From contig NC_134961.1 of NCBI RefSeq assembly GCF_965638725.1, positions 2,914,001-2,978,000 on the forward strand: a DNA stretch of 64,000 nt, read 5' to 3'. The position numbers were made by a program, and so were the translations under genes. This stretch comes from Aptenodytes patagonicus (lineage: Eukaryota > Chordata > Aves > Sphenisciformes > Spheniscidae). Below the pieces are notes generated by a model. The model had not been told where the DNA came from. It did not search any database and worked only from the letters and a program-made list of their open reading frames with translations. Shown here piece after piece: positions 3,376 to 50,620 of this stretch (position 1 is the first letter of the stretch; each line of letters opens with the position of its first letter).

Positions 3376-3738
3376 ATGGAAGAAGTCTGGGTTGTGTATC
3401 TCTGCCTGATCTTGCTTATCATGGTGCTTCTTCTAATGAGGCATAACCCGCATGTGGAAGAGGCCAAGAAGGAGAGGGAAAGCAAAAGCCCCCCGCCATC
3501 CTCTTCCCTTTTCCCCAGTAATGTCGGCAAACAACTGGAGCACACCCAGGAAGAGCTGGAAAACTATCTGGACAGGCTAACCCACGTCTTGTTTGCCACA
3601 GAAGGCAGGAAAAGGGATGGCCAACATGATCAGAAGTCCCACCATCACCGAAGTGCTGATGTTGTGTCTGAAACTAAGGAGCATTCAGGAAAGGAGGCAG
3701 CACACTCTCAGTATCTGTCAAGCTACGCAAGGGTTCAG
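3376..3738 (+). CDS. Exon 1 (coding) of small single-pass membrane protein
   Basis: This exon encodes residues 1-121. The ATG has a strong Kozak context (A at -3, G at +4). Residues 5-21 are a hydrophobic helix (VWVVYLCLILLIMVLLL), followed by basic and charged residues. This suggests a signal anchor with most of the protein in the cytosol, though topology is inferred. Residues about 52-72 are charged and helix-prone, with a possible short coiled coil (KQLEHTQEELENYLDRLTH). A His/Lys/Ser-rich linker follows. The open frame ends only two codons past a consensus donor (CAG|GTATGAG at 3738/3739), as expected for an exon running into intron. The splice leaves phase 0. I do not recognise the family. 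Confidence 0.6.
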
Positions 3739-29177: not shown

Positions 29178-30048
29178 ATGGGAGATATCTGGCTGGTTGG
29201 ATTGATGGTACTTGTGTATGTCTGGTTTCCCAAGGTTGCTGCTCAGAATCTCATAAAAAAACCCAGGGACCAGAAAACAGAGTATACCCTCTTGATTAAT
29301 GAGGTCAATGCTGACAGCCCAGGAGAGGACACTTCGGAGTTTGTGGAGCTCTATCACACCAGTGGTCAAACAGCCCGCTTGGATGGCTACTATCTGGTCT
29401 TCTACAATGGCAATGGAAACCGAGCCTACAAAGTTTTGAACCTGCAGGGCAAAGTTACTAATAGCCAAGGGCTCTTTCTCGTTGGCTCTTCTTCTGTGAA
29501 CCCTGCTATAGTAATTCCTAAGAACACTATCCAGAATGGCCCTGATGCAATTGCTCTCTACTATGGAAAAGGGAACTACAAAGAGGGCATGAGCGTCACA
29601 AGTTACGGACTAGTAGATGCCTTGGTCCATAAAACTAAGAAGATGGACAGAGCAGATACGCTGGTCAGGGTACTGACCCCTGGCAGAGACGCTTTCCTGG
29701 AGGACTCCACCTTCAGGACCATGGATGAGTCAATAGAAAGGTGCCGTGGGGCAGATTCTCAGTGGATCTTCCAAGTGGCCATGCCCACCCCAGGCACAGA
29801 CAACCACTGCATCCTAACTTCTCAGCTGAATGCATCTGTTGTCCTGATCAGTGAGGTCCTTGCTGCCTCTTCTTCTGAAGAGTTCGAGTTCATAGAGCTT
29901 CAGGGTCCCCACTCCACCATGCTGAGGGACATTGTTCTGGTGCTGATCGATGGTCTGACCAAAGACATTTATTTCACCATGGACGTTTACGGAAAAACCT
30001 CACTGGATGGACTACTTCTGATCGGTCCAGCACAAAGCAAGACCCCAG
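29178..30048 (+). CDS. LTD gene coding exon 1: signal peptide, LTD1, first half of LTD2
   Basis: The exon encodes residues 1-290. The signal peptide core is [15 protein letters not shown]1 starts with [12 protein letters not shown], continues with [10 protein letters not shown] and [11 protein letters not shown], and ends in [12 protein letters not shown]2 starts at VVLISEVLA with EEFEFIEL. The exon ends CCCCAG|GTAAGG and leaves phase 1. Reading through this donor adds about 37 residues before a stop at 30159-30161, so intron retention would give a short secreted form. Confidence 0.9.
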
Positions 30049-33000
30049 GTAAGGACTGCATTTTGATGACTACCTCAGAGCTGGGGGAGCGATCAGCCAA
30101 ATTTGGGGCTGGAGGATGCTATCTTTTTTTACTGTTGTTTGGCGTTCTGAGAGATCGCTGAAAATGTGACTCAGAACTCAGTGGCAGATAAAAAAGCAAA
30201 TCAAATGTTAGAAATTATTGGAAAAGGAATTATACAAAGTGAGTTAAACATTAGAAATTATTAGGGGAAGAGGAAAGAATGGAGGCCATCTTTTACGCCA
30301 CTGTATAAATTCATGGTTTGCTTGTATCTTTAATTGTGTCTTGTGTGGTACGATACCTTCATCTCAAAAAGGATATATTAGAATTGGAGACATTCAGAGA
30401 AGGTCAGCGAGGATGGATAGTGCTCTGGCAATGCTTCCACAGAAGAAATAACTAAGTATGCCTGAAAAAGGGAAAGCTTAGGAGGGCCCTGACAGAGGTT
30501 TCAGAAATGTGAGTAGCCTGAAGAAAGTGGACAGGGATTGATTGCTTACTCTTTCTCCTGGTACAAGAACTAAAGGGCATCAAAGAAGGTAGAAGGAGGT
30601 GGTTTCAGGACAAACAAGTGGAGGTGGTGTGTCTCGCAATAGTAGTAGACCTGCAGAGCTCCAGATGAGGGACCTCGTGGAGGTCAGAAGCCCACGTGTG
30701 CCTTTGCTGCTCGGGAGGACATGGTTCTGCTCCCAGCCCTGTGGCCAGCCTGCCGCAGGACCCTGGCTGTGCCACATCTCCTTGACGTGTCCCCCCTTCT
30801 CTGTGTGTAACCTGGTGGTCATTCACAGCACATACATACTCTCTTCTCAAAGAAGCACATTCCATTGCACCATCTGCAAATGTAGGTCACACATGTGTCG
30901 GCTGTGTGAAGCTGCAATATAAACTTCCTCCCAACGTTCAAAATTTCTCCCAGGCCACCAGAGGAGGAAGAAATATCTTGTTATTTTGGACACCTCAAAA
31001 GAAGATTTTGGCAGCTGGAGACACTGACTCTGCAGATGTCTTGTGTAATTCACTGACTCGTGATTTCTGAGTCAGGGAGTATATTCATCCCTTACAAAGC
31101 TGGTTCCCATAAAAATAAAAATACTTCTGCAACTAAAATTTCTTTTTTTTTAAAGCAGTTGAGCTCCTTTTTACAATTTAAACTGCTCCAAATACTCTCT
31201 CACCACAATTAGAAGAGCAGATTGTCCACCTGAGCTCTGCTTTTCTCACCAGGAAAGCTGCTCTGCTCTTACCTCTGGATGAGCTGGGGCTGTTAGCAGT
31301 CAGTAAGCTAAGGGAGTTCAAAGAAAGTGATGTGAAAGCACAGCCAGCTTGCAGACTAAGCAGGAAATTTCTAAGGATTATGTTTAACTGTTCCTCAAGG
31401 CTCACTCAAGTCAAGAAGGTGACTGGAGATATGCTTTGGCATTTTTTTCCAATGAGGCTTTGTCAAGATGTCTCAAGCATACTGCACACACGTTTTTGTG
31501 GAAGGTTTTTCCCCAAAAAACACCCAATGACACTGTGTAATTACATTTTAATCATCTTAAAAGGATATTTTCATAGTCACTCCATGCTGAGCACTCTGTG
31601 AGAAGTTGACCACTTGATTTAACCTGACCACTTCAGAGTTGGGACAGGAGCTCTTAAAATGGCCCGGGCTGTTAGTCCTGTCTTTGTACGGCTTGTCTGC
31701 CTATCACTGCAGAGAACTTAAAGCTGTGAGAGCGCCGGAGCAAAAGTCCTCCCTTGACAGATGCCAGTGTGAAAACTTTCAGTTGAATCATAGGATGGTT
31801 TGGGTTGAAGGGACCTTTAATGATCATCTAGTTCCATCCCCCCTGCTGTGGGCAGGGTCATCTTTCACTAGATGAGGTTGCTCAAAGCCCCGTCCAACCT
31901 AAACTTGAACATGTCCAGGGATGGAGCATCCACAACTTCTCTAGGCAACTTGGTCCAGCGTCTCATCACCCTCATTGTAAAACTTTTCTTCCTTATTCTT
32001 CTAATCTAGATCTACCCTCTGTCAGTTTAAAACTACTACCCCTCGTCCTATCAGTACAGGCTCTGGTAAAAAGTCTGTCCCCATCTTTCTTATAAGCCCC
32101 CTTTAAGTACTGAAAGGCTGCAAGACTCCCCAGAGTCTTTTCTCCAGGCTGAACAACCCCAACTCTCTCAACCTTTCTTCATGGGAGAGGTTCTTCCAGC
32201 CCTTGGATCATTTTCATGGCCCTCCTCTGGACTCGCTCTAACAGGTCCATGTCTTTCTTGTGCTGGGACCTCCAGAGCTGGACGCAGTGCTCCAGGTGGG
32301 GTCTCATGAGAGTGGAGAAGAGGGGCAGAATCACCTCCTTGACCTGCTGGCCACGCTGCTTTTGATGCAGCCAGGATACAATTGGCTTTCTGGGCTGCAA
32401 GCGCACATTGCCGGCTCATGTCCGATTTTTCATACACCAGTATCCCCAGGTCCTTCTCTGCAGGGCTACTCTCTACCCGTTCATCCCCCAGTCTGTACTG
32501 GTACTGGTGATTGCTGTCACCCAGGTGCAGGACCTTGCACTTGGCCTTGTTGAACTTCATGAGCTGACTCCTCCAGCCTGTCAAAGTCCCTCTGCATGGC
32601 ATCCCGTCCCTCAAGGCATCCCATCAGCTGCATGACTCAGGTTGGTGTCATCCACAAACTTGTTGAGGGTGCACTCACTGCCTACGTCATTAATGAAGAT
32701 ATTGAACTGTATCGGTCCCAATACGGACCCCTGAGGGGACACCACTTGTTACTGATCTCCATTTGGGCATAGATCTGTTGACTGCAACTCTTTGGATGCG
32801 GCCATCCAGCCAATTCCTCATCCATCTAATAGTCCATCCATCAAACCCATACCTCTTCAATTTAGAGACAAGGCTGTTGTATGGGACTGTGTCAAAGGCC
32901 TTGCAGAAGTCAAGGTAGATGACATTGGTTGCTCTTCCCTTATCTTCCAACGCAGTCACTCCATCGTAGAAGGCCACCAGATTAGTCAGGCAGGGGAAAA

Positions 33001-36000
33001 CCAGCCCCCTGTGCAGGGGTGCATCAGGGCTAAGGGACAGGACTGCCCCTTAGTGTGCGGGTGCCCCGGTGGCACTTCTCAGGGAGTAATCACGTCTCCT
33101 TACCCCTCTGCCTCTCATGTGATTCCCCCTTTAATGTTTGTTCCCTGGAGCCATTTATCCAGGCAGAAGTATTGAAATATCAGCAGTCTGCTGCTTTTTA
33201 ATAGCCTCAGCAGTTCCTACTGGGTGCTGGGGAAATAGCTTGTGAAGGGAACAGTAAATACGAGGAAGGAAATTGGGAAGCTCATGAAACTGGGAGGCTC
33301 CACCAAACCTCAACCTTAATTCTGTATGCTGGTATCTTGGGCCTTTGCTGAATATGTGTGTGTATATATGTGTGTGTGTGTGTGTGTGTAGAGTGTTTGT
33401 GTTTGTAAAAAACACAGACTGTTAAATGCTAGAATAAAATGTAAATTCTTAAATATTTCTGTGTACTATTAAAATAACTGCCACCTGACAGTTTGGTGGA
33501 TTTTGCAGATCTCTTTTAGAATTACAAATTGACTTTACTGTAGACAAAGTCACATCAGAACTTGCTTTCCAGTTCCCCTGCTTACGCATAAATCAGCTTC
33601 TCTGTTTGCAGAACCAAAATAGCAGGATGAACCCTGCTCAGATTTCCCCCTCCAGCCTCCTCCATGCTGTGGATCTGGCCACAAATGGGGAAATTCAGCC
33701 TGAGAGAACATGAGAAATGTTAGTGAGCAGAAAGATGGGCCAGCGGATGCCAAATTTGCAATAACCAGATAACCCCAACCACTTTCTGAGTTCCTGTGTC
33801 CTGCTCTCCGGGACCGAAGAGATCCTGGTTTCCTACATAGTGGGTATCGCTCGTGTGTTGCTTACGTGCCATTGTTGTTTCTTTCCTTGCTGGTGTGCAG
33901 TGGATCTGCCGTTCCCGGAGAACGCCACCCGTCCTGTCCTCAGAGGTGGCCCCAGTGCCATTGCCCTCTACAGAGGCAACAGCAGCAGTTTTGTCCCAGG
34001 GAAGGCGCTGCCGGTGACTGGCCTGTTGGATGCCTTCGTGTACACGAGCAATGAGGAACCGAACCCTGAGCTGCTGGAGACCCTGACCCCTGGCAGACCT
34101 GCCTACGTGGAAAAGCGGTGAGAGGCTGGGCAGGTCTGGGAGGAGAGTTTGGCACCAGAATTGCCCTTGCCTGCTGTCCCAAACCCCAGTCAGGACTGGA
34201 AGACAAGTGCCACCTCCAGACCAGGGTCTCTTCGTGGCGGTATTGAGTCCCGGCCTTTTTCCACCGCCTGGTCTGAGTTTGTAGGTGTCCCCCTCTCCAC
34301 AGCAGTCCTGGTGCAGCTGTACAGTTGCAGAATAAACTACTTGAGGAGGAATTTTCTGACCAAATGATTGCTGGTTATTATTTTAGAATTATAATTATTT
34401 ATTATTTATTACTTATAAAAGTGTAATGGTCAATATTATAAATTTTCCAGTACCACTTTTGACAAGAAAAGGTTTTTCTTAGGTTCAGGATGGAATTTTA
34501 GGTCAAAATGAGGGCGAGGGAGGGACTTCAGTATTGCTCGTCTGACCCAGGAGGAAATCCCTGCCCTGCTTCATCCGAACCAAGGACTGGAAGCTGGGTT
34601 ACTGTTCATTCTGGGTTGAGCCACTTCCTTTTTGGCTTTTGGGTTTCTTTTTGTCTTTGTGGGTTAAGGGAAATGTTAGTAACCTCAGACTTTTGTGAGA
34701 CATGAGAACTGTTTCCTTCACATTTTAGGCATGCTCTACTAATGGGAGAAAGAGAACAGAGTGGGTAAAGGACAGCAGAGCAGGTGGAGGAACAGAGGCA
34801 GCGAGGTGCCGTGCACGTGAAGATGGGGTGGGGTGTAAGCAATAAGCAAAAAAAATCTGGGCAAGCTCTTGTCTGTGGTTTTGATGGTAAAGCACCAGAC
34901 TTGACTTCTGTGTGTAATTGTCAACTAAATACCAATATCCTGGCTCTGTAGCTGGAGGAGATTCACCCTTTCTGGATGGGCCTGTGAAAAGACCATTTGA
35001 GACTACAGTGGAATCAACTGCATCAGGAACGGGTGTAGCTTACTCCCATGACAGGGTCACCACTGATTTACAGCATATTCCTCTTCCTTCCTTTGCTTGT
35101 CTTCCTCCCACTTGTGAAACAAAATCTGCATTTATCCCATAAGGAGGTGGTCTCCTTCCCTGAGGAGCTCTGAGCAGCTCTGCTCTGTGCAGCTCCTCAC
35201 AGTGAGGCTTTATCCTCTTTGCCTTTGAGTGGAGGGCTCTTGCTCAAGCATTTCATCCTCAGGTGCTGCCTTTCCAGTTTCTCTACCTGCACCCCACTAT
35301 TCTTTGCAGTGGTCCCAGGCTGAGCACGAGTGTGTCTGTACTATCTTGCCTGCCTTCAGATAGGTCAAAAAAGCAGCCAGTGCTAGAAGAGAAAGGGTTG
35401 GAGGAAGCCCATGCTCTTCTCTCTCAAGATTTAGTGAGCTCTTGGGCTTTTTTTTGAGACACGTAGGTACTGATGAGGATGGGGTATCTCTCCAAACCTT
35501 GTGAAGGGAGAAGACTATAAGTGTGTGGTTTCACCCTCTGGTGCAGGCAGGTGTGACTGGTGGGTGAAGAGCACTCAGGTCTCTGGCTGGCAGGTCATGT
35601 TTTCTTTCATTTGCATGTCTGTCTCTTGTAGGCACCAGCTGGGAGATGTGTCCATGAGCCAGTGCAACTGCTGCTCTGTGACCCGGGACTCCTTGTCCTA
35701 CATCCTCAGCAGGCCCACCCCTGGCAAGTTCAATGATTGCCCCAGCAAACGCTTCAGCCAGACTGTCTCCTTCTGCCTTCGTGTAGCAGGTGGGTATTAG
35801 TTATTCCTGCTCCTGTAGGCAGGACCTCCTAAGGACAAGAGCTCATGCACAAAGCCAGAGCTGTCCAGGAAGAGTCGTGCTGGGTTGTGTGAACCTAACA
35901 CCAAAGGAAACATAACTAGGACATCTGACAATTTTCTGCAATATTTTTCTTCATGGCAATCCGTGCCAAGCTGAGCTTCTCCAGTCTTCATTCCCACACC

Positions 36001-39000
36001 CAACTGCTCGGGGTGAAGAGAAGCCTTTTCGGGCCCTCTGAGTGATAAGCAGGTGCTGAGCTGCACCCACCCCAGAATGAGCTGGCTCCCATGACCAAGG
36101 TTGCACTGGCTGGGTAACATTTGGCTTTTTGTTTCCTAGATTGCCAGGAGTGGCTCTTGAAGTCAGAAGAGATTCTGATGACTCTGGTCCAGGCCCTCGA
36201 TGGATCCTGCAGCTGTGGAGTCTCTGCTGCCTACTTCAAAGGTGAGCTGGGCAGGAGCGGGGCAGCCCAGGGACCACCAGTGGTTAATGCACACTCGCTT
36301 CTGATTTTCAGCCCTGTGTTCCCTGTTGCATTGCATCCTCCTGGCTTGCATCCCAGCTAATTTGAACTTGGTGCTGATGACAGAAATGTTGAGTGTTAGC
36401 AGAGCATGGTGCTGTTCTTCCATGTTCCTCAGAGTGCTCCCGTCTGCAGCTCCACCAGCACACATCAGTGCTCATCTGCAGACCACCAGCTATTTTGACC
36501 TTGAGCATTTGAAGTCAGACAGATGTGGCAACAGGGTTGACATCTCGACTAGGAGTTTGTTGCCTGCTTGACCTTATGAGCCATATAAACTAAGCCAAGT
36601 TGCAGCAGAAATGCAAGTGGACTTGCTGGTCTGTGTTGCTGTTGTGGTTTAACCTCAGCCAGCAACTGAGCACCACACAGCTGCTTGCTCACTGTCCCCC
36701 AACCCCTGGTGGGATGGGGGAGAGAATTGGAAGAGTAAAAGTGAGAAAACTCGTGGGTTGAGATAAGAACAGTTTAATAATTGAAATAAAATAAAATAAT
36801 AATAATAATACCAATAATAATAAAAGAATATACAAAGCAAGTGATGCACAATGCAGTTGCTCACCACCCACCGACCGATGCCCAGCCAGTCCCCGAGCAG
36901 CGGCTCCCCCAGCCAGCTTTCCCCCGTTTATGTACTGAGCATGACGTCCCATGGTATGGAATGTCCCTTTGGCCAGTTTGGGTCAGCTGTCCCCCCCTGT
37001 GCCCCCTCCCGGCTTCTTGTGCACCTCCAGCCTGCTCAGTCAGTAGAGCACGGGAAGCTGAAAAGTCCTTGACTAGTGTAAGCACTGCTCAGCAACGACT
37101 GAAACATCGGTGTGTTATCAACATTGTTCTCACCCTAAATCCAAAACACAGCACTGTACCAGCTACTAGGAAGAAAATTAACTCTCTTGCAGCTGAAACC
37201 AGGAGAGTTGCTTTTCTGATAGCCCTACTAGGTTAGTGCACGAGTGTGATTAGCACATGCAGACACATGAAGAGAAGAGGCATGACTTTGCAGGCTGCAA
37301 TGTCAGCAGCGTAATGTTTAGCTTACATTTAGACACCCCCCAAAGAGACCGTTCTGTTCGCTGTTGGGACCACAAGGCTTCAAAAGGATGAAGACAGTAT
37401 CTGGGTGTGCTGTGTGACTTGGTCCCAGATGGCCCTTGGCACAGGCAGAGCTCACAGCGTTGTGCGGATGCTATGAGCTGCCCTGAGTCAGTCTGACCAG
37501 GAGGGCAGTGGTGGTAGAGATGAGCTGGTGAGCTCTGTGTCTCTTCCAGGAGAAAGTGGGGTTTTGGCAGCATGGGGAAACTGAGGCAGTTCTCTGCTTG
37601 CCTCTGCAGAGCCAAAAGCAGCCTGCCAGGACCTGGGGCTTGTGTTCACCACTCTGCTAACCGCTAAGTCAGAGGACCAGCTGAGCAGCCTGCTGCTAGC
37701 CTTCAAGACCTTCCTAGAGACGCCCAGACTTTTGAGTTTTGACAGAAGGAACATCACAGCGGAAAGCTCCTGCTTCAAGGATATTAATGTGCCGGACTTG
37801 TCTCCAGGTACCAGTCATCATTCTTGCAGGTTGGGGGATACGATGTGTTTGAGGGTAGACATGTGGGTCTAGCTCTCCTAGAGGAGGGAGATGTCCCTCC
37901 CTCCATTTCCCCAGCTCTGGCAAAGATCCCTTCCAGTTCCATCGCATCCAGTTACTAGAGCCCATATTGCTCATTATCTGGAATAACAGCAAGCTCTATT
38001 GTTACAGCTGGTATTAGCCAGAGTATTGCCAGGGCTCTTCTGAGGAGTATGGAGCACACAGATGATAAAAATCTGAGCCAGCATCCTCAGTCCTCTGCTG
38101 AATTTGGTCTCACCCCAGGAAAATAGTGTGCAACGTTGTGTTGTTTCCCTGGGGCTCTGTGCTTAGGCCCGTATTTGTGACATTTTTGCCTTCCAAGGTG
38201 TCCCATCAGAGATACCAGAAGGGACTCAAGAACCTGTGCAAGTGGCCAAGCTACTCATCAACGAGGTGAACCCAGACAACCCAGGGGGAGGAGAGGATGC
38301 AGAGTACATCGAACTCTTCTACACTGGACGGACACGCTTTGACCTCCAGGGATACTGGTTGGTCCTCTACAACGGTAAAAATAGCCGGGCCTACCGGGTG
38401 TTGGACCTGTCTGGACACCACACGGATGAGCTGGGTTACTTCTTGGTGGGGAGCAGCGCCATGAGCCCAGCACCCATGATCAGGCTGCCCCCCAACACCA
38501 TCCAGAACGGGGTGGACGCTGTGGCTCTCTACTACAGCAACACCACCTTCTACGCAATGAACATGGCTGTGACTGCAGAGGGGCTGGTGGACGCTGTGGT
38601 ATACACATCCAAAATGCCGGCGAAGGCAGACCAGCTGGTCAAAGTGCTCGTTCCAGGTCAGAGAATCCTGTACGAAAATGATTCTCACAGCACCGAGGAT
38701 GAGTCTCTGAGCCGCTGCCACAGCCTGAGCGGAAAAATCCAGAGCAGCTTCCAGGTGGGTTGATGGCAGATGTCCTTTCCTCCTTCCATAGTCACTGGGA
38801 GGGCAGAGGTCGTGTTTCAGTATGTCCTTTCTTTGGGAGAGCAGGGCGTTCTAGTGAGACACGTCCACCTCCTGCCATCTGCTGGTGCTCTCACCAGCCC
38901 TCACCCCCCTGCCCCATTCACCCGCCTGTTGTTGGCCAGGTAACAGCTCCCTGCCCTGTGCGGCATGGCTCAGAACCAGGAGATCCCTGAAGACAGCTTA

Positions 39001-42000
39001 CATGCCACCAACCCCAAAACCAGGGAGTCTGCTTTTGGGCAGCATCTTGGACTCTCAAGTTACCCCGAGCCAGATGTGGAGCCACCTCTTCACCCCGGCT
39101 TGTTTGGTGCCACTTCGGGATGTGTGGTACGGCACGTCACGTCCCAGAAACCCAGCTTCCTGCAGGGCCGATGTGTGAAGGACGTGCCTCGACCACTGGT
39201 GTGATTGATTTCTGCTAATTCGTCTGAACTGTTCCTTTTTATTTCAAAATGTCTGGTTTCAGATAGTCCCCCTGAAGGAACATGACAGAGTATATATGCT
39301 TGTCCTGCACAAAGCTGGGTAAGGGAGGGCTTTGCTGCTTCACTGCTGATGCCTGCTGGGATCGGGCCAGCGCAGAGGTGTGCTCGGGTCCAAAACTGGA
39401 GCAGTAAAACTGCTGTAGAAGCAGAAGAGGTCTGCTGGCAGGAGGGAGGTGCATTTGCAGTGGGACAGGACCACAAGGAAGTGATGCCGTGGACTGGAGA
39501 CACAAGTGTAGAAGTGCTCCTGATGGTAGGGAAAGAGAATTGTTCCTAGTCCCAAGGGTGGGATTGAAGGCAGTGATGGGGATGTGTGGTGATGGGACCC
39601 TGCCGTTGGGACAACCCTTGAACAGACAGTGGGAGTAAGGAGCAGCTGGTGTGAGGCAGAACCACCACGTCCTCTTTGGGCCTCACCAGGGAGCCATGGG
39701 AGGCACAAACAAGAGGTAAGGCCATGAGCAGCCATCTCTCCACCTGAAGAAATGGGAGCAGCAGTGGTGGCAGCCACTTTTGTGTCTCCCCGCAGGTGAC
39801 CACAGTGACACCGCTAAGGGAGAACTTCTGCAGCAGCTCCTCGGCGCTGGTCCCTCCTGCCGTCCGCATCAGTGAGCTGTGCCTAGCTGGTGGCACTACC
39901 CCCTTCCGCTTCGTTGAGCTGGAGGGGAAGCCAGGCACCAGCCTGAGAGGGCTCAGTCTGGTCTTCTTGGGGAAGGAGGGCAAGGCGCATGCCAGTGTCC
40001 CACTGAGGGGCACCATCGGAGTCACGGGGCTCTTCATGTTTGCGCTGGACGGAGGGCATGGGCACGGTGAGGCTGATGGCACGGACCTGGCGTGTGGTCT
40101 GTCTTGAAACAAATGGGCAGGTGGTTGAGCGGCTTTGAGGAAAGGGATGGAGGAGGGAGCATGGCATGGGGAACAACTCTTCTCTTCCTTGCCTTTCCTG
40201 TCCTTTATTCCTGTTTTTTCTCTCTTTGTTCTGCCTGGGCTGTTCCGTCACACTCCAGCTGAGAAGGTGCTTAATCCTCCTCCACGCCTCTGCTGAGCTC
40301 CCCGTGCAGGGCAGAGGGACTGGGACGACTGAAAACTGCCAGTACCAAGACAAGGGGGCTTTCAGGAGAAGCAGGGTCCACCAGGACTGTCAGGTCGTTC
40401 ACTGATGCCATGTTCACTGATGCTCACTGAGCCCTGCAGTGCTGCTGCCTTCTCCTGGTCCTGAGGTGGTGTTTCCTCAGCACATTTGTTTATCTTGATT
40501 TATTTTTTGTTCACCTTAAATTCTGGCTGGGCTGCATGAAGAGGACTCTGCATCTCAGAGGAACCTTGATCTTTTTGGAAACCTGTGTTCCCAGCAAGCA
40601 GCTGCTTCTTTACAGCTTTACTTGGCCTCAGTCACCACCATTATTTTGTCTTCTGTTTCTGTTCTTGGAGTTCTCCTTGTTACCAGCTTGTACTGTCAGG
40701 CTCAAGGCTCAGCCTAACACTATCTAGATGTTCACCCCACTTATTCCCCTGGCATTTCCAGATGGCACAAACCTGACTTTCAAGGGCATCTCTGCTGCTA
40801 GTGAAGGCTCCAGTGCTATTGCTGTGTATAGCACCAGCTTGATTCCTGGTGGCACAAAGGCAACATCAGAGAACTTGGTGGATGCCTTGGTTTACACGTG
40901 TGAGCCCAGCACAGCTCGAGGACACTTGGACTTCCTTGGACCATCTTACGCTGTGCCCTGCAATGACAGCAGGTGAGGTCGCTTCTCTGGGAAAATGTCT
41001 TTGGGTTCCCCGCACCCAGACCCTCCAGCTGCAATGTCGCTGAACTTGCTGCCTTGTCCTGCGTCCTGTACGGCTGAATGCATTCACCGGCACTGTGATG
41101 AAAAACAGAGAGTTTGCACATTGCAATGGAAAATGTTTGCCTGCCCTTGGCATAGGGAATTGAACTTTGTTCCTCCGCTGCTCACTTAACTTGCTTCCCC
41201 CAAGGATATGTATGGCATCACATGAAGGAATGCAGCCTTTGCAGATAGCAGCTGTATAGGCTTATTTGCCAAACCTTTTCTTTAAAAAAAAACCCAAACA
41301 ACAAACCAAACAAAAAAGGATATCCCTGTGAGCAGCAGAACAAAACAAAACCCGACATCCCTTTTGCTCCTATGTAGACTCAACAACAAACGGGGCTGAG
41401 CCTTTCTCTTGGTGGGAATACTAGCAGAGTTCTTCCTCTCCACATGATCACCTCTGTTAATTAAATCTGTCCTCCTCAAGCCCTCTGCTCCCCTGTCCCA
41501 TCTGGTGTGACAGGAGGTTCTGTGTTTGTAGCCTCCCCTATGAGCATGCGTGCACAGAGCGCAGCCCCATGTGCACGGTTTTCCCGGGAAACGGAGATCT
41601 CCGGCTTCTGGCTGGCTGAAACTGTGCTGAAACCTCGCTGGAGTGGTTATTCACAAGATCAGGGCAGCATTTTGGTGGGAGAGCTCACGTGGGCTGACTC
41701 CAGGCAGCCTCTATCAGTCCAGCCCTGAACGACCGCATGCAGAAAAGCTGGTTCCTCACACCGTGACCAAGTTTCTAAGTCCTGGTGTGGGGAGGGAAGC
41801 AATAGGTTAGTGAAATGCAGAGGCAGATATTGTGTAGCTTGGAAAACTCCTTATCCTGGAGGACAAACTCTTAATTTTGGGACACTGGCTGTAATGAGGC
41901 ATCAATCTTACTCCTACAGAAGACAGTCAGACCAAATAGGTTTGCTCTGGCCAAGCCCAGGTCTTCTCCAACTGGTGGGGTTGGCTGGACCCATCTCTGA

Positions 42001-45000
42001 TGGCTCTGTGAAAGCTGATTTCAGCTCCAGCTCCAGCAAACTCTCCATCGTCCCCAGCAGCATCAGGAACTGGGGCCCGGGAGGGTTTTGTGATTGGAGG
42101 TGGGAAGAAAGGTGTGTGATGTGTTGATGAGCTCTGACTCCTCTTCTGGGGACAGGCCCGTGTCCCTGAGCCGTTGTGCCTGCGGCAATGCCAGCACAGA
42201 GCTGCAGTTTGCCATCTCGGACCCTACCCCTGGTCTGCAGAACAGCTGTCCCCAGGACGCCTTCGCGGTGGATTTCCACCTCTGCCTCCTGACACCCAGT
42301 GAGTGGAGCTGGGTGCCTCCACTGGTGCAGGGTGGGAGGGCTGGGCTGGGGGGGATGGGAGGCTGACCCCCAACTTCCCGTGGCATGGGAGGGGGATGCT
42401 GTCGGGGACCCTGCTGCCTCCCAGTCATGAAAGGGGATGTGCTGGGGGAGAGCTGGTACAGACACTCATGTATTGATGTGATTCCGCCATCCCAAGAGGG
42501 CAACCTCGCTCACAGCTTCAGCGTGTGCTTGTATGAAGGTGGCCACGTACTTCATTTGAGACCTCCCTGCTCAGGCAGGGCCGAGCCCCGCTCTTGGGAT
42601 TTCTTTCTACAGCGTTAGATTTGCAGCAATGGCAGGAAAGCCCCCCCCCCCCCCCCCCGATCTCTCATGATGGCAGGGGCATGGTCAGGGAAACTGCCAG
42701 CAAACCCTCCTGTCTCAGCCCATCCACGGGAACAAAGCGGTGTGGCTCAGTCCTGACTCTGGAGCCAGCAAGCAAAAGTGCAGTGGGGTCTCCAGTGCCT
42801 GCAAAGGCCATGCTTGGATCAGCTTGGGGCAGTCAAAATCTGGGTAAAATGAAATGGAGGTTTCTCCTCCTCCTCCAGCCTCCTGAGAGGGGCAGGCAGT
42901 GGACCTCTCCCTCCTCTCCCAGCACGAGAGACCACTCTGTACTGGCCCACGTGGAGGGACATGTGGGACATGCCTCTTCCCCACTCCCCTGGGAGGTTGG
43001 TGAAGGAGTGAAGCTGGCGTACATGGTCATAGAAGGGCAGAAGTGAAGACTCACCCTGCAGGAGAGGGGCAGAGGAGGATGGGATGCAGAGGAGGGTGGG
43101 ACGCAGGCTCTGGAGGAGCTTTGCTCCTGAGCTCAGGCATGAAGCCAAGTGTTTTGGAAGACGCATGCAGCTGGGAGCTTATTAACAACCCCGAACTGCA
43201 CACAGAAAACCAAGTCTCCTTTTCCTCTAGACTGTTCCATGTGGACCCTGCACCACAAGAAGATGCTGGAAAGTTTGGGAAGGGCCTTGGTGAGCTCCCT
43301 AGAGGAGAAGTGCTCCTGCGGCGTCTCTGAGCTCTACCTGCAAGGTTGGTGCCCCGCTGCGCTCACCCATTTTGCAGTGCCCTCCTCCCTCACCCGTCCA
43401 CAGCTGCTCGTCATCAGGACGGTCCCTTCTCAAGCCAAACTTGCAGGTTTGCACTCGAGTGAGGGGAACTGGAGGAGCAGTGGGATTTCAGCGAGGAGAG
43501 CAGGAGAGAGCCTGACGCGGGCTGGTTACTAGAGGAAGGGCAAGCTAGAGGGGCCGTGAGGAACGGGAGTCTCTGATGATGCCTCAAGATGTCTGCCAGA
43601 CAAACTGAATATCCTAAACCCGCAAAGCAAAAAGCCATTTGCACTCTAGAGGACTCTGGTTCTCTACTCTTTCTCTATCAGTCTCCTTCAATGTCCTATA
43701 CTTATTCAAAGTACCTGGACTTTTTAGTCACTTCTGGAAGTCTTAGGGGCCTACAGCTTTTGAGGGATGGGAAGAAATGTTTCCTATTTTTTTGGCTGGT
43801 TTTGTAAGGAAATGAAAGCTTCGCAGTCATGCTTTGTCTCCCTCACCCAAACACGCTTGACCCTTTGAACAATTTCAGACAATTCTTACCAACGGGTAGA
43901 GATCGTGAAGTTACGAAGTGTAGTACAAAGTATTCTGCTGGGTTGGGAGGACGACTCCAAGTCCCTTTTGTCACCAAAAGAAAGGTTGAGCGTGTGCTCA
44001 AGTTACCTGCAATACAGCATGGCGGCGTGATTTCAGAGAGGTGGCAAGAAGAGGGTGAACAGCATGGGAGCAGGAGGGTATTACTGGAGCAGGGCATGAA
44101 GTCATGGGAGCAATGTGTTCCGGAACAGCCGGAGGGTTTCCGACCATCCAAGACCAGCTGTTTTTTCTCTGCAGAGCTGAACCTGATGTGCGTGGGCTCC
44201 CTGGTGAAGGTCTGGGGCCAGATGTGGGCTCGGCAGCTGGAGCAGCAGCAGTCCATTGAGACCTGGCGCCAAGGCTTCCTGGCCAGCTCCCACCCCTTCT
44301 CTGTGGACGGGAGACTGCTGAAAACCAGTCCTGAGTGTGTCACCCCAAAAAATGCACTATCCGTGTCGCACAGCGGTGGTGAGTAGGAGGCAAAGCTAAG
44401 CACAGTGATCTGCTTCCAGCACAGCGAGTGGAGCTGGGGCCAGGGTCAGACCACGTCTCCACATGAGAGGGGCAATGCAGGGCAAGCCACCAGGGACCTC
44501 TGGTGATGCTTCCCAAATACAGCTGCCTTCTAGAAACTGTTGGGTCATAACGAGAGAGGTAACGACGGTCCGTTCCTCCGGTATGATGTGGTAGTCAGCC
44601 CTATCATGCCAATATCACTGGAAGTTTGGGTGTCTAAATCTTCTTGTGAGACTGAGCTTCACTGGGGAGCCCCTTGCTTTTGGAGCTGTTGGACACACAG
44701 CCCAGAAGCCCTGAAGCCCAATTGCTCGGAGCAGCACCCAGGCTGGAGCCAGCCAGAGCCGGCACACCGTAGGGGGTGCAGCCAGGAGAGGTAGAAGAGT
44801 GGCTCTCCAGATCAGGAGGCTGGGACAGCCCAATCTGTTGTTGCCCAGAGAAGTTGTGGATGCCCCATCATTGGAAGTGTTCAAGGTCAGGTTGGACGGG
44901 GCTTTGAGCAAACTCATCTAGTGAAAGATGTCCCTGCCCATGGCAGGGGGTTGGACTAGATGATCTTTAAAGGTCCCTTCCAACCCAACCCAACCCAACC

Positions 45001-46259
45001 CAGCCCAACCCAAAACCCAACCCATTCTGTGACTCTCTGATTCTGTGACCTCCTGGTGGCACCCTGTGCTGGGAAAGGTCATGGCAACAATGTTCTGTCT
45101 CTACCTTTGCACCCTCAGCTTCCTTCCGGGGCTGGGAAGTTGCCCTGTTTGTCGTGGGATCTCTTCTGCTCATGTTCTTGTTGGTCAGCCTGGCATTTTA
45201 CTTCATCAAAAGGTGAGAAACCACCTTCCCATCTGCCTTGCATCTCTCACCTTCTCTTTCCCTAGTGCTTCCTCTCTAACTGCTGAGCAGGGACCTGCTC
45301 CTTCACTCGGGTGAACACCTACATTCAGATGCTGCATCCAAACAAACACTTCAGTATGTTGCTCCTAATTTTTGCAGCAAAGCCCCTTTGCTTTTGATGT
45401 GGCAGACTGCAGGTTCCGCAGGAGGTTAAGGTACCCACCAATAAAACCAGGGATAATGCTAGGCGTGTCAGCGGGCACAGTGTAAAGGCCATCAATCTTA
45501 CTTACAACATGCTGTGGTGGGACCACAGAAAGCTGAAGGCTCGTGGCACGCACGGGGCAGTGAGAGATGATGCTTTGGCCACAGGGAAGAGCTCTTCCTT
45601 AGAGTGGGGTGGAAGCAACGGACAGTTTAGGATTACCTTGATGGGAAACAGCTTCCACATTATAACATGACACCACTTTAAATAATTACTTGGCGTTCCC
45701 TAACGTTGTCAGCAGGCAAACAGCAGCTTAACACTCAGGCTGTATGTTTGTCTGAAATAAATATTACAGTGGAGGTGTTATTTAACCAGCCCAGGAGATT
45801 TATTTCCATGGATTTTTACTGATCTTTCACCATTGGAGAGGGGGCTGATGTGTAAGTGTTAGAAATGAGGAAAGTTCTTAAAACACATTTGGGGAATAGA
45901 AAACTCAGTGTGTATTTTTTAAAGGAATTTAAAAAATACCGTAAGTCAGGTTTAGGGATTCTCTTTTAGAAACCAGGGTGGTTTTAAGTTGATGTACCTG
46001 TGCCAGGTGATGGCAGGCGTTCTGCTCCTGTTTTTCCCCAAAACATTAACAGAGACCTTAGTAAACTCTGTGCCTGCTGCAGGCTGGTCATCCAGCCTCT
46101 TCATTTTGAGTGCAAAGCTGAGATGCAGATTAGCTGCCTTGTGCAAAAGAGCAGAGCGACTGATCTTGCATTTTTCTTTGTCTGTTGCTTTTCAGACATC
46201 CCCAAAATTACACCAACATTGAAATGAATGACCGCGGGGAGATTGCAGAAGACTTCTAA
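29178..46259 (+). CDS. Type I membrane protein with four LTD-like ectodomain modules (13 coding exons, 1067 aa)
   Basis: Thirteen exons, all with GT-AG borders and matching phases, give a 1067-residue protein. Residues 1-22 are a signal peptide (likely cut VAA|Q). Four modules follow, about 37-205, 217-392, 530-713 and 721-890. Each carries the lamin-tail-domain pattern of an I(N/S)E start, a later FVEL/YIEL-type strand, an A(I/V)A(L/V)Y strand, a (L)(V/L)DA(L/F/V)V strand and an end near TPG..N.C. Each pair of modules is followed by a cysteine-rich, helix-prone segment with the shared motif CSCGVS (about 416-515 and 910-1015). Residues 1023-1045 are a transmembrane helix and 1047-1067 a short tail with a YTNI motif. 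About ten N-glycosylation sequons lie on the outer side. The family's function is unknown to me; recognition, adhesion or receptor roles are guesses. The start has a strong Kozak context. Confidence 0.9.
30345..30620 (+). mobile_element. Old, diverged CR1 LINE fragment
   Basis: The phrases AAAAAGGATATATTAGAATTGGAGACATTCAGAGAAGGTC and, later, GTACAAGAACTAAAGGGCATC match the layout of old CR1 open-reading-frame ends in archosaurs and turtles. It is in sense orientation within intron 1 of the LTD gene and full of changes. Identification is by pattern only. Confidence 0.55.
31786..32996 (-). mobile_element. CR1 LINE, 5'-truncated, antisense in intron 1 of the LTD gene
   Basis: About 1.2 kb reads on the minus strand as the end of a CR1 reverse-transcriptase frame plus the 3' UTR. 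Translated pieces show the palm motif [11 protein letters not shown] and a diverged SGVPSG motif around 32977-32690, then the C-terminal part of the frame around 32614-32168. The frame is broken by shifts, so the copy is dead. The 3' end (low coordinate) has the usual GGTTGGA/ATCCTATGATTC-like terminus. The 5' truncation at about 32996 is typical of LINE insertion. Confidence 0.9.
33355..33392. repeat. (TG)n microsatellite
   Basis: A run of about 38 bases of TG dinucleotides is interrupted by TATATA, within intron 1 of the LTD gene. Confidence 0.85.
33901..34117 (+). CDS. LTD gene coding exon 2: middle of LTD2
   Basis: The exon encodes residues 291-362 between TGGTGTGCAG and AAGCG|GTGAGA. 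Phase 1 in, phase 2 out. It carries [11 protein letters not shown] and [10 protein letters not shown], the same two strands seen in the other three modules, and TLTPGRPAY. Sequons NAT and NSS are present. The counterpart in the second half of the gene is exon 8 (40762-40972), with identical phases. Confidence 0.9.
35632..35789 (+). CDS. LTD gene coding exon 3: end of LTD2
   Basis: The exon encodes residues 363-415 between TCTCTTGTAG and GCAG|GTGGGT. Phase 2 in, phase 1 out. It contains a cysteine cluster (SQCNCCSV) and the module-ending PTPGKFNDC. The counterpart is exon 9 (42156-42298). Confidence 0.9.
36140..36241 (+). CDS. LTD gene coding exon 4: first helical Cys-rich segment
   Basis: The exon encodes residues 416-449 between TTTGTTTCCTAG and AAAG|GTGAGC. 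It is phase 1 at both ends. It starts DCQEW, has a predicted amphipathic helix and the motif CSCGVSAAY. The counterpart is exon 10 (43231-43344) with CSCGVSELY. Confidence 0.88.
36640..37206 (-). mobile_element. Second solo LTR of the same ERVL-like family, in intron 4 of the LTD gene
   Basis: This is a 567-bp element closely similar throughout to the LTR at 24169-24700 and in the same orientation, so antisense to the host gene. A perfect 5-bp target duplication GTTGC flanks it (36635-36639 and 37207-37211). The terminal dinucleotide next to the right duplication is GA instead of CA, a single change. It has about 20 extra bases near 36980-37000 relative to copy 1. No internal region is present. 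Confidence 0.9.
37610..37807 (+). CDS. LTD gene coding exon 5: second helical Cys-rich segment
   Basis: The exon encodes residues 450-515 between TGCCTCTGCAG and CCAG|GTACCA, phase 1 at both ends. It is Leu-rich and helical ([20 protein letters not shown]), with cysteines near both ends and an NIT sequon. It ends the first half of the ectodomain. The counterpart is exon 11 (44175-44378). Confidence 0.88.
38198..38754 (+). CDS. LTD gene coding exon 6: LTD3
   Basis: The exon encodes residues 516-701 between TTGCCTTCCAAG and TTCCAG|GTGGGT, phase 1 in, phase 0 out. It starts the second half. [43 protein letters not shown] and DESLSRC match LTD1 step by step. The donor falls at FQ|V, and LTD1 has the same FQV without an intron. 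Confidence 0.9.
39796..40066 (+). CDS. LTD gene coding exon 7: end of LTD3 and first half of LTD4
   Basis: The exon encodes residues 702-791 between GTCTCCCCGCAG and CACG|GTGAGG, phase 0 in, phase 1 out. It completes LTD3 (LRENFC) and begins LTD4 with [11 protein letters not shown] and FRFVELEG. It matches the second part of exon 1. Confidence 0.9.
40762..40972 (+). CDS. LTD gene coding exon 8: middle of LTD4
   Basis: The exon encodes residues 792-861 between GGCATTTCCAG and CAGCAG|GTGAGG, phase 1 in, phase 2 out. It carries [11 protein letters not shown] and [10 protein letters not shown] plus NLT and NDS sequons. It is homologous to exon 2. Confidence 0.9.
42156..42298 (+). CDS. LTD gene coding exon 9: end of LTD4
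   Basis: The exon encodes residues 862-909 between TCTGGGGACAG and CCCA|GTGAGT, phase 2 in, phase 1 out. SLSRCACG and [10 protein letters not shown] match exon 3 (PTPGKFNDC) and the LTD1 ending. Confidence 0.9.
42641..42658. repeat. Poly-C tract
   Basis: Eighteen consecutive C bases lie in intron 9 of the LTD gene. Its length is likely to vary and to be error-prone in sequencing. Confidence 0.9.
43231..43344 (+). CDS. LTD gene coding exon 10: third helical Cys-rich segment
   Basis: The exon encodes residues 910-947 between TTTTCCTCTAG and CAAG|GTTGGT, phase 1 at both ends. The donor is weaker than the others. It has an NCS sequon, a helix and [11 protein letters not shown], homologous to exon 4. 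Confidence 0.88.
44175..44378 (+). CDS. LTD gene coding exon 11: fourth helical segment, juxtamembrane
   Basis: The exon encodes residues 948-1015 between TTTTCTCTGCAG and GGTG|GTGAGT, phase 1 at both ends. It is a Trp- and Gln-rich helix ([19 protein letters not shown]) followed by SPEC and a Ser/Thr-containing stalk before the membrane. It is homologous to exon 5, though more diverged. Confidence 0.88.
44815..45049 (+). mobile_element. CR1 LINE 3' end in intron 11 of the LTD gene
   Basis: The typical CR1 ending is present: GCCCAGAGAAGTTGTGGATG, GGTTGGACGGGGCTTTGAGC, CCATGGCAGGGGGTTGGAC, GATGATCTTTAAAGGTCCC. The usual CCAACCCAA terminus has expanded into a (CCAAC)n microsatellite at about 44980-45015, followed by TTCTGTGACTCTCTGATTC. 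Confidence 0.88.
45119..45212 (+). CDS. LTD gene coding exon 12: transmembrane helix
   Basis: The exon encodes residues 1016-1046 between TGCACCCTCAG and AAAAG|GTGAGA, phase 1 in, phase 2 out. [20 protein letters not shown] is a clear membrane-spanning helix followed by the stop-transfer residues KR. Reading through the donor gives an immediate TGA, so intron retention would produce a tail-less protein. Confidence 0.92.
45756..45761 (+). promoter_or_regulatory. Intronic AATAAA in intron 12 of the LTD gene
   Basis: A canonical poly(A) hexamer lies 544 bases past exon 12, followed by GT-rich sequence (CAGTGGAGGTGTT). If used, it would end a transcript just after the transmembrane exon. Its use is unproven. 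Confidence 0.25.
46196..46259 (+). CDS. LTD gene coding exon 13: cytoplasmic tail and stop
   Basis: The exon encodes residues 1047-1067 after TTTGTCTGTTGCTTTTCAG, phase 2 in, ending at TAA 46257-46259. The tail has YTNI (a Y-x-x-hydrophobic sorting-type motif, residues 1052-1055) and an acidic end. Confidence 0.9.
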
Positions 46260-47735: not shown

Positions 47736-48113
47736 TCAGATGAGCTCCATCTTGAACTGGCTGAAGTTTGGCACGGTGGGCGAGGGCTCGGCCATACTGC
47801 TGAAGGGGACACAGGGCTGGTTCGCTGGCACAGTGCCGTGGCTCACGGTGGAGCTGAGCTGCTGCAGTGTCATCAGCACCTCCTGCTGGAGCCGCTGCTG
47901 GTGCTCCTGCTGGCGCTCCAGGCGGCACTGCCTCTCCAGCACTGCGTGCAGGGCCTGGCTCAGCTTCTGGATCTCCGTCTGTACAGCATCCAGCTTTTCA
48001 GCAATGACATGGGAGCTGGGAGCAGGGGGAAGCACTGGTCCGCCCCAAGCAGGGTTTTGATTTCCAGGACTCGTGGGGTTCAGCAGGGCAGTCTGAGTGC
48101 TGGCGTCTTTGAC
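47736..48113 (-). CDS. HTH gene exon 3: coiled coil and C-terminus
   Basis: The exon encodes residues 197-321 and the stop. The acceptor on the minus strand is a pyrimidine-rich CTCCTACTACTCCAG in phase 0. A Gln/Glu/Leu-rich coiled coil (AEKLDAVQTEIQKLSQALHA and on) spans about 50 residues. The C-terminus ends in MELI. Confidence 0.8.
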   Translation of the reverse strand, partial: VKDASTQTALLNPTSPGNQNPAWGGPVLPPAPSSHVIAEKLDAVQTEIQKLSQALHAVLERQCRLERQQEHQQRLQQEVLMTLQQLSSTVSHGTVPANQPCVPFSSMAEPSPTVPNFSQFKMELI

Positions 48114-50366
48114 CTGGAGTAGTAGGAGGCAGGAGAGAAGGGAAGGTAAAACATTATCAGCTGCTCCTTCAATGGTGATTAGCAAGAGAGGGATTTATTC
48201 TGCACTTAGCTACAAGGCATGAGAGAAAGCCATCACCTTGTTGCGGACATCTAGACCTCACTGTGCTCTGAGCTGCACTTCATCCCCACCCAGCCCCTAT
48301 GCCACTGCTCCGCAGGAACACCACGTTGCCCTGCATGCTGTCAGTATGTGCTTAGCCATCCGGTGGTGGATGCTGGTGGATGACAGCCAGGCTGCCCATG
48401 CTGATGCCAGGCCTGTGTTTGCTCGCTGCGCGGACAGAAATAGCATATCCTGGGTTTTTCTTTCCAGCTCCCCCCATTTCTTGTATGGCACCCTGAAGCA
48501 AAGGGCTATTCTGCTCCCTGAGAGGGATCATCACGTGCTGGTTTTGAACCCCAGGGGAGCCTTTCTCCTGGAAGGGGTGTTGAACAACCTGTGTCCTCTC
48601 AAGCAGCTGGCAAGGGCTCTTGACAAACACTTGAGTGGGCTGGAGAAGGTGTTTGCTGAGTCCGAGCAGAGACAGGGCCATGAATGAAGGCTCAGCCTGA
48701 CTCACGGCTGTGTTTTGTACCCAGGATGCCACGGCGAGAAAGCCAGCATCCTACCATCCTCTGTGGGGGTAACAGCATTGCCCGTCAGTGAAGTCTCCAG
48801 AGGTTGGAGGCTGCTCTGAAGGGGTAAACCTTGGGGATTGGGGCAGCCCCGTGGCCATGCTGCCCCGCTGGCAGCCTACCCAAGCTGGTCCTGGGACTGC
48901 TGGGTCACTTAACATTCGTCACATGGCTTGCCGTGGCTGCCAGCAGAGCTGGGCTTGGCTATGCTGCTGGCCAGCCAGCTGCATGCTCACCATGGTGGGC
49001 AGGATGGCCACAGGGACGTGGACCTGCTGGGACAAAGCATGTACAGCCACGGCCTGGGGGTCTCGCGGCATGGCGAGGCGGGGTTGTACACGTTAGGGAT
49101 TGTGGTGGCTGGACATGTCCCAGAGGGTGGCTGTCCTGGCTGTGTCACCTTGTCCTGGCCCGCTGCAGCCCTTCATCTCCTGGTGTGGCACGAAGCCACT
49201 CAACCGCTGGTGTCCTCGTGGTGGCTTGGGGTACCTCCTGAGCTGGTACTGAAACCAAGCCTTAAAGAGGGGGTCTGTGAGCTGCAGGTTGGAGGCCAAC
49301 GCTGGCAGAAACTGGCATCACTGCGGCCAGCATCGCCCAAGGGCAGCAGTGAGTGCTGGCTGCAGGCGGGTGGGCAGCATGCCCCATGGCCCCAGCAGGC
49401 AGGGGGGCTTCCCAAACGAGCTCGCCAAGTGCCAGTGTCAAGCATCACTCAAGAGTGCAGCTAGCAGAGGTCGGGGGGGGCACCTCAGGAGCCTTTCATC
49501 CCCAATGGCCTGCCTGATCTGCATGGGTTAGACTCAGCAGGGTGCTGTGCGGGGCCATCCTGGCGGGCAGCACCGCACCAGCTCCCGGCCAGAGCAGACG
49601 GGCTCTCCGGTCCCGCTGTGATGCCTGGCATCCTACCTTTTTCTGCAGGAGGATAGCCCTGTCCACGATCTTCTTCTTCACCACCAGGGCTGGGTTCCTG
49701 GTGGGGGGTGCGACCAGCCGCCCTCGGCTGGGCAGGGGCTGTGGGGGGGTGGCTGGGCCCCCCAGAGGGGGGCAGCTCCCCGGAGTCGAGGGGGTGCATG
49801 TAGAGCCATCATCGCCTGCAAGGGACAGCAAGAGAAACACCTCGAAAGGAGGCCCTTGGGGGCTCCGTGGCAGGGGACGGGGAGCCCTTTCCCCAGCCCA
49901 GCACTGCCTGGGGCGGGGGGCCATGGTGGTGACCCCCCGTGGGGAGCCAGGCCTTACCGTTCCCAGGGGGCAGTCCCACGGGCAGGGCCTCCCCGAGCTG
50001 CCCGCCATCCTTGCAGAGTGAGGCCACGCTAACGATCTGGATGCCCTCCTTGGTGTCTTGGCCACCAGCGGGGCAGGGCACCCGGCTGCCCGCGGGGCCC
50101 CCGCCGGGCATTGCGGTGGTATGGGCACCCATTGGCTCGGGCAGCTCAGCCTCACGCCCCCGCAGCGGGGGCCAGGGCTGGTCCCCGTCCCAGCCAGCTG
50201 CCGCCGACCCCGGCTCCACACTCTTCCGCTTGAGGAAGAGGTACACGGCCTGCGGCGTCACCCGGATGTCATCCAGCTCCAGCACCTTCTTGATCTTGCG
50301 GAAGCTCAGCCCGGCCCTGCGCAGCTCCACGATCCTCCTCTTGGCGTGGTCGTCCAGCCGGCCCAT
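47736..50366 (-). CDS. HTH and coiled-coil protein, probable nuclear DNA-binding protein (3 exons, 321 aa)
   Basis: Three minus-strand exons (50366-49958, 49815-49637, 48113-47736) join with matching phases to give 321 residues. Residues about 7-48 form a compact helix-turn-helix (AKRRIVELRRAGLSFRKIKK, then TPQAVYLFLKRK) resembling the homeodomain-like N-terminal DNA-binding domain of Tc1/mariner-type transposases. There is no catalytic DDE domain. A Pro/Gly-rich linker follows, then a basic patch (KKKIVDRAILLQKK, about 183-196) that could be a nuclear localisation signal. Residues about 234-285 are a Gln/Leu-rich coiled coil, suggesting oligomerisation. Transcription factor or domesticated-transposase origin is inferred. 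The gene is convergent with the LTD gene. I do not know a symbol. Confidence 0.8.
49637..49815 (-). CDS. HTH gene exon 2: Pro-rich linker and basic patch
   Basis: The exon encodes residues 137-196. The minus-strand acceptor is TTGCTGTCCCTTGCAG and the donor AAAAAG|GTAGGA. Phase 1 in, phase 0 out. The linker is rich in Pro, Ser and Gly, and the end is the basic, helix-prone VVKKKIVDRAILLQKK. Confidence 0.82.
49958..50366 (-). CDS. HTH gene exon 1: helix-turn-helix
   Basis: The exon encodes residues 1-136. The ATG at 50366-50364 has G at -3 and G at +4, and an in-frame TAG eleven codons upstream (50399-50397) supports it as the start. The HTH lies at residues 7-48. A later part reads TKEGIQIVSVASLCKDGGQ. 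The donor is AACG|GTAAGG on the minus strand, leaving phase 1. Confidence 0.85.
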
Positions 50367-50620
50367 CGCTCCCGGCACCCCTCCTGCGCCTGGCAGCTAC
50401 ATCCCTGGCGTGCAGCCGCTGTGGGGACGCCGGCAGCCCCCCAGGCAGCGCTAAGCCCCGTGACGGTGCTTGGGCTCTGCTAGTGCTCTGCCACCAGGCT
50501 GCCGGCCCCGGACGTGGGTCCACACAGCACCATCCCCAGCTTCCAGCAGTGACCCGGTTCCCAGCCAGAGAGGAGGAAGGAGGCAGCTCTTACCACCGGA
50601 GTGACTAGGGACAGCCCAAA
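50367..50620 (-). promoter_or_regulatory. GC-rich 5' region of the HTH gene
   Basis: CpG-rich sequence continues from exon 1 upstream to about 50560 and probably holds the 5' UTR and promoter. No TATA box is seen, and no exact start site can be assigned. Confidence 0.4.

What the first reader, a model, noticed from the sequence alone, without database searches (positions are those of the whole stretch)
29178..46259. Cell-surface protein with four lamin-tail-domain-like modules
Thirteen exons assemble in phase into a 1067-residue protein with a signal peptide, four LTD-like modules, two Cys-rich helical segments, one transmembrane helix and a short tail. All four modules share the I(N/S)E start, an A(I/V)A(L/V)Y strand and a VDALV-type strand, and end near TPG..N.C. 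LTD folds in animals are best known from nuclear lamins; bacteria also have secreted LTD proteins. A glycosylated extracellular array of four would be an unusual animal receptor or adhesion architecture, and I know no name or function for it.
Basis: partly seen in the sequence, partly recalled or inferred. Interest (0 to 1): 0.85.

Follow-up and report, generated by a model that had tools for sequence, protein, structure and literature searches.

The report
Surface receptor with four lamin-tail domains
A bird (probably penguin) gene makes an unstudied membrane protein whose outer part carries four domains of a fold best known from the nuclear envelope; closely similar proteins occur from fishes to birds and platypus, and longer ones in sea stars, acorn worms and lancelets, so it looks like an old, still unnamed receptor-like family.

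Summary

The gene belongs to an unnamed family (si:ch211-183d21.1 in fish, MGC145260 in Xenopus) seen in tetrapods including monotremes, lobe-fins and ray-fins; hemichordates, echinoderms and lancelets have longer versions, 17 of 23 with the SEA-like domain. No therian is among the 120 listed hits of the platypus query. Tails carry YxxPhi in 121 of 125 vertebrate proteins (48% in shuffles) and FxNPxY in 10 of 24 invertebrate-type relatives. Best reading: an endocytosed type I receptor or adhesion protein, ligand unknown. Eight paper searches found no study of it.

The parts
29178..30048 (+). exon 1 (871 nt): ATG, signal-like peptide (about residues 1-22), whole LTD module A (residues 36-212, 29283-29813), first half of LTD module B
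   Evidence: Pfam LTD 45.4 bits over residues 36-133
33901..34117 (+). exon 2: second half of module B
35632..35789 (+). exon 3: PTPG..N.C end of module B and first strand of SEA-like domain C
36140..36241 (+). exon 4: SEA-like domain C, helix 1 and CxC
37610..37807 (+). exon 5: rest of SEA-like domain C and linker
38198..38754 (+). exon 6: linker and most of LTD module A' (residues 532-701)
39796..40066 (+). exon 7: end of A' and first half of LTD module B'
40762..40972 (+). exon 8: second half of module B'
42156..42298 (+). exon 9: SRC.C / PTPG..N.C end of B' and first strand of SEA-like domain C'
43231..43344 (+). exon 10: SEA-like domain C', helix 1
44175..44378 (+). exon 11: rest of SEA-like domain C'; residues G955-S956 lie at the strand 2 / strand 3 turn
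45119..45212 (+). exon 12: transmembrane helix (about residues 1019-1046)
   Evidence: (KD 2.76)
46196..46259 (+). exon 13: cytoplasmic tail [20 protein letters not shown] and stop; YTNI is a YxxPhi-type motif

Best explanation
It is the bird orthologue of an uncharacterised family of type I membrane proteins. SHOWN by sequence and prediction: the ectodomain is two copies of the unit LTD-LTD-(SEA-like), followed by one TM helix and a tail of about 20 residues; relatives of the same layout run from ray-finned fish to birds and monotremes, with longer ones in hemichordates, echinoderms and amphioxus. INFERRED: the protein is sent to the cell surface, N-glycosylated and disulphide-locked; the LTD rod, above all modules A and A', presents the binding face for a protein or glycan ligand; the SEA-like domains stiffen or shield the parts nearer the membrane; and tyrosine sorting signals in the tail (YxxPhi in vertebrates, FxNPxY in several invertebrate relatives) bind clathrin adaptors, so that the receptor and its ligand or cell contact are taken in. 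It most likely works as an endocytosed receptor or turnover-regulated adhesion protein rather than as a structural lamina component.
Confidence: 0.45

Rival explanations
1. A cell-cell or cell-matrix adhesion protein: the rod of Ig-like LTD modules binds in trans, and the tail motif only sets its turnover.
For: Repeated beta-sandwich ectodomain with a SEA-like membrane-proximal part and one TM; depleted from retinal macrophages and so detected in other retinal cells. Bacterial adhesin repeats are among Foldseek's top rows, but at rmsd too poor to count.
Against: No RGD, KGD or LDV in the window protein; the tail is about 20 residues and I recognise no cytoskeletal linker in it; FxNPxY tails of some relatives fit cargo uptake as well.
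Confidence: 0.3
2. A soluble or shed matrix, mucus or biomineral protein: the SEA-like domain cleaves itself and the LTD array is released.
For: Gly-Ser at the turn where SEA domains cut themselves (site recalled) in 17 of 21 invertebrate or unnamed C domains; LTD-annotated proteins are reported in octopus mucus and pearl sac work (passages seen), but these may be ordinary intermediate filament proteins or LMNTD1-like.
Against: Gly-Ser is found in only 18 of 139 vertebrate C' and 5 of 98 vertebrate C domains; 131 of 134 vertebrate proteins examined have a TM stretch after the last module, 125 of them with a tail of 18 or more residues.
Confidence: 0.15
3. A lamin relative working at the nuclear envelope.
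Against: No rod domain in Pfam scans, signal-like N-terminus, module-closing cysteines C189, C211, C689, C713 in 78 of 78 rows, TM, no CaaX end; the closer structural match is bacterial DUF4876, and in eight bacterial-type proteins the 40 modules found score 36-143 bits, most over 100, against profiles built from vertebrates.
Confidence: 0.02
4. Function marginal: a conserved but dispensable protein.
For: No therian mammal among the 120 listed hits of the platypus query, so therians seem to live without it.
Against: The reading frame, the module order and the module-closing cysteines are kept over the vertebrate rows aligned.
Confidence: 0.08

Closest known systems
si:ch211-183d21.1 (ray-finned fishes), MGC145260 (Xenopus), 'LTD domain-containing protein' entries
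   Same: Orthologues by sequence: same module order, TM and tail
   Different: Ray-fins lack the first SEA-like domain (44 of 223 retrieved proteins read A-B-A'-B'-C': 34 named, all ray-finned, and 10 unnamed). Uncharacterised; the one paper found lists the zebrafish gene in an expression table only (PMC6423051, passages seen).
Multi-LTD membrane proteins of Branchiostoma, Ptychodera and echinoderms (P0066, P0121, P0157, P0158, P0164)
   Same: LTD array, in 17 of 23 named invertebrate proteins a C domain, then as a rule a TM
   Different: 8 to 12 LTD modules in these five (P0121), longer tails, FxNPxY in some; six Branchiostoma proteins (P0066-P0068, P0155, P0156, P0171) have no C; all uncharacterised
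Bacterial-type LTD arrays (P0220 Candidatus Promineofilum MAG, P0196 Flavobacteriaceae MAG, unnamed P0167)
   Same: Same full-length module, 28-43% identity to amphioxus in the best local alignments; E, E, D and R of the signature in all 24 modules examined, N in 87%
   Different: Joined to Big_5, PKD, nuclease or sorting domains in three of four scanned; the closing Cys in half of the modules only; no C domain
DUF4876 (BT_1938, PDB 4q1z)
   Different: No DUF4876 Pfam hit to the window protein
Lamin tail domain of lamins A/C, B1, B2
   Different: Modules are about 175 residues with an extra C-terminal part and a Cys pair; no rod, no CaaX
SEA domains (TMPRSS6, MUC16, dystroglycan; assignments recalled) and the SorCS2 957-1066 domain
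   Same: Strand-helix-strand-strand-helix-strand fold near the membrane
   Different: Extra conserved cysteines; no Pfam SEA hit

Membership tests
Pfam LTD (PF00932) | profile score above the curated cut-off (34.3 bits) | tested here: met
   Exon 1: 45.4 bits. Module A' scores 32.2, below cut-off; B and B' give no hit but join A and A' at hhalign 99.8-99.9%.
Pfam LTD (PF00932) | Ig-like LTD fold | tested here: met
Nuclear lamins | coiled-coil rod (intermediate filament domain) | tested here: not met
   No rod family in Pfam scans of both halves at E up to 1
Nuclear lamins | C-terminal CaaX box, no signal peptide or TM (recalled) | tested here: not met
   Ends in EDF; signal-like N-terminus and TM
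SEA domain | profile hit to a SEA family | tested here: not met
   Four C domains (penguin C and C', Ptychodera, Lytechinus) gave no SEA hit at E up to 10
SEA domain | strand-helix-strand-strand-helix-strand fold matching solved SEA domains | tested here: inconclusive
   Topology as expected; SorCS2 7.6, TMPRSS6 6.6, 8yt8_O 5.6, MUC16 entry 5.3, but HMG-CoA reductase, PheRS, TRADD and others score 5-6.4 too
SEA domain | Gly-Ser autoproteolysis site at the strand 2-3 turn (site recalled) | tested here: inconclusive
   Gly-Ser in 17 of 21 invertebrate or unnamed, 18 of 139 vertebrate C', 5 of 98 vertebrate C; cleavage itself not testable
DUF4876 | sequence profile hit | tested here: not met
   Not among families with E up to 1
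Endocytic receptors with tyrosine sorting signals | YxxPhi or FxNPxY in the cytoplasmic tail | tested here: met
   YTNI in the window; YxxPhi in 121 of 125 vertebrate tails (shuffles 48%); FxNPxY in 10 of 24 invertebrate-type relatives
Endocytic receptors with tyrosine sorting signals | adaptor binding and internalisation | not testable with these tools
   needs cell assays

The most novel reading that the evidence does not exclude
A whole undescribed class of deuterostome endocytic receptors: arrays of bacterial-type LTD modules on a SEA-like, in invertebrates possibly self-cleaving, juxtamembrane domain, with FxNPxY or YxxPhi uptake signals; duplicated as LTD-LTD-SEA in vertebrates and lost in therian mammals, so that human biology never revealed it. 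The module family is shared with bacteria and may have crossed between bacteria and animals.
Probability: 0.35. Interest if true: 0.78.

Novelty: new variant of a known kind. Interest (0 to 1): 0.62.

Why it matters
The LTD is textbook material mainly as a nuclear lamina domain. Here it forms the ectodomain of a membrane protein kept from ray-finned fish and coelacanth to frogs, reptiles, birds and monotremes, more than 400 million years (age recalled), yet with automatic names and no study that I could find. Zebrafish and Xenopus orthologues make it testable at once. Apparent loss in therian mammals would explain why it was missed, and its bacterial-type modules bear on where the LTD fold came from.

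Full report
WHAT WAS CHECKED. The open frames of the region and three-frame views give 13 exons with GT-AG borders. Independent support: tblastn with the crane orthologue P0004 (91% identical) and the alligator orthologue P0030 (62%) hits 13 of 13 exons each; the coelacanth P0070 (45%) hits 8 of 13. All 12 junctions run through aligned orthologues (eleven sequences compared, exon 13 absent from the three penguin entries, which are partial), among them P0005 and P0021, taken from contigs of 3569 and 3558 nt. A 17-kb gene cannot fit there unless spliced, so those contigs are probably transcripts; the source label 'lgn' does not say so. The nearest proteins are from Spheniscus penguins (98%) and Eudyptula (97%), so the window is very likely penguin.

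WHAT THE PROTEIN IS BUILT OF. Exon phases largely repeat between the halves, and profile comparison shows why: A and A' 100%, B and B' 100%, A and B 99.9%, C and C' 99.4%, no link between LTD and C. So the ectodomain is one duplicated unit, LTD-LTD-C. Pfam calls module A an LTD at 45.4 bits and A' at 32.2 against a cut-off of 34.3. In 100 modules from 21 chosen proteins (7 vertebrate, 6 invertebrate or unnamed, 8 bacterial-type), Glu42, Glu57 and Asp147 are in all, Arg188 in 98, Asn209 in 96; the module-closing Cys pair is in all animal and unnamed modules but in half of the bacterial-type ones. In the 78-row vertebrate alignment (78 rows picked from the proteins) C189, C211, C689 and C713 are in 78 of 78.

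THE FAMILY. With my six module profiles on all 223 retrieved proteins, 89 read A-B-C-A'-B'-C' (86 named: birds, turtles, a crocodilian, squamates, amphibians, Latimeria twice, Protopterus, platypus, echidna; 3 unnamed) and 44 read A-B-A'-B'-C' (34 named, all ray-finned fish; 10 unnamed); the rest are partial or odd vertebrate models, invertebrates, unnamed and bacterial-type proteins. The platypus query listed 120 of 240 hits: besides itself the only named mammal is echidna. An intact therian orthologue should have ranked near the top, so loss in therians is likely but not shown. The amphioxus query (502 hits, 120 listed) brought Ptychodera, sea urchins, sea stars, crinoids, a sea cucumber, brittle stars, and bacterial-type arrays. 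All the hemichordate and echinoderm proteins scanned and one amphioxus group have a C domain after the last LTD, so LTDs-C-TM looks ancestral; six other Branchiostoma proteins have no C. P0105, P0122, P0181 and P0182, of unnamed origin, also have C after the last LTD. P0173, unnamed too, has no C and adds a Frizzled-type domain (57.5 bits).

BACTERIAL SIDE. In eight bacterial-type proteins (two named: a Flavobacteriaceae and a Candidatus Promineofilum MAG; six unnamed, judged by company) 40 modules score 36-143 bits against profiles built from vertebrates and share E42, E57, D147 and R188 in all 24 examined. Three of four scanned carry Big_5 and PKD, or nuclease and sorting domains; the fourth only LTDs above cut-off. 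In the module tree they form one side of a branch (SH-aLRT 99) among animal modules; it is unrooted and these rows were chosen as best hits, so direction and age of any transfer stay open. A 2016 lamina survey noted LTD-like domains in bacteria and in non-lamin eukaryotic proteins; the passages seen do not describe this family (PMC5630835).

HOW IT MAY WORK. The vertebrate tail is 20-odd residues with a tyrosine a few residues from the membrane: YxxPhi in 121 of 125 tails (134 proteins with the two standard architectures, window included; 3 without TM and 6 with tails under 18 residues left out), but shuffled tails show it in 48%. Of 24 invertebrate-type relatives, 10 have FxNPxY, the LDL-receptor-type uptake motif (recalled): four Branchiostoma FDNPLY, Ptychodera FGNPVY, three sea stars FANPVY, FGNPVY, FSNPVY, Diadema FLNPIY, and an Amphiura protein without a convincing TM (FANPLY); shuffles of each tail give at most 0.002. 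Two other urchins read FVNPVR and the sea cucumber VNPVY; 14 of 24 lack the full motif. Together with the best conservation in A and A', I read the protein as an endocytosed receptor or adhesion protein whose LTD modules bind the ligand. Shown: gene, domains, conservation, motifs. Inferred: surface location, glycosylation, uptake, ligand binding. Expression: the zebrafish orthologue is among the top 50 transcripts depleted in mpeg1-positive retinal cells (log2 -10.3; PMC6423051 Table 2, passages), so it is expressed in other retinal cells, not chiefly in macrophages.

NOVELTY. Domains known; combination and family not described in the eight paper searches made on it here; that library lacks most subscription papers. 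Databases list the proteins as uncharacterised or 'LTD domain-containing'.

Noticed in passing
32693-33049 (-), intron 1: Reverse-transcriptase fragment (PF00078, 29.6 bits, at the cut-off), looks like a CR1-type element (recalled).
   Followed up: partly
63251-63984: G+C-rich minisatellite, 38- and 117-base periods, 87-89% matches.
   Followed up: no
47736-48194 (-) and 49809-50396 (-): Two open frames, one coiled-coil-like, one helix-turn-helix-like by eye ('DDHAKRRIVELRRAGLSFRKIKKVL'), perhaps exons of one neighbouring gene; no Pfam family above cut-off.
   Followed up: partly
3331-3744 (+): Open frame with a hydrophobic stretch after an internal Met, no Pfam hit; possible small membrane protein exon.
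   Followed up: no
P0054 (Zootoca vivipara): Gene model carries fibronectin type III domains in the middle of the LTD protein; a real insertion or a prediction error.
   Followed up: no
P0064 (Varanus), P0123 (Pelobates): Family members deposited under odd names (XPB helicase subunit; glycerol-3-phosphate dehydrogenase).
   Followed up: no
P0070 and P0074 (Latimeria): Two paralogues in the coelacanth; the second has an altered tail without the YxxPhi motif.
   Followed up: partly
P0173 (unnamed EukProt transcript): LTD array preceded by a Frizzled cysteine-rich domain and followed by a TM.
   Followed up: partly
4q1z / BT_1938: The closest structural relative, DUF4876, is listed in the iron-dependent stimulon next to a TonB receptor in Bacteroidetes (PMC10434189, passages), a hint that such modules can serve nutrient-related uptake.
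   Followed up: partly
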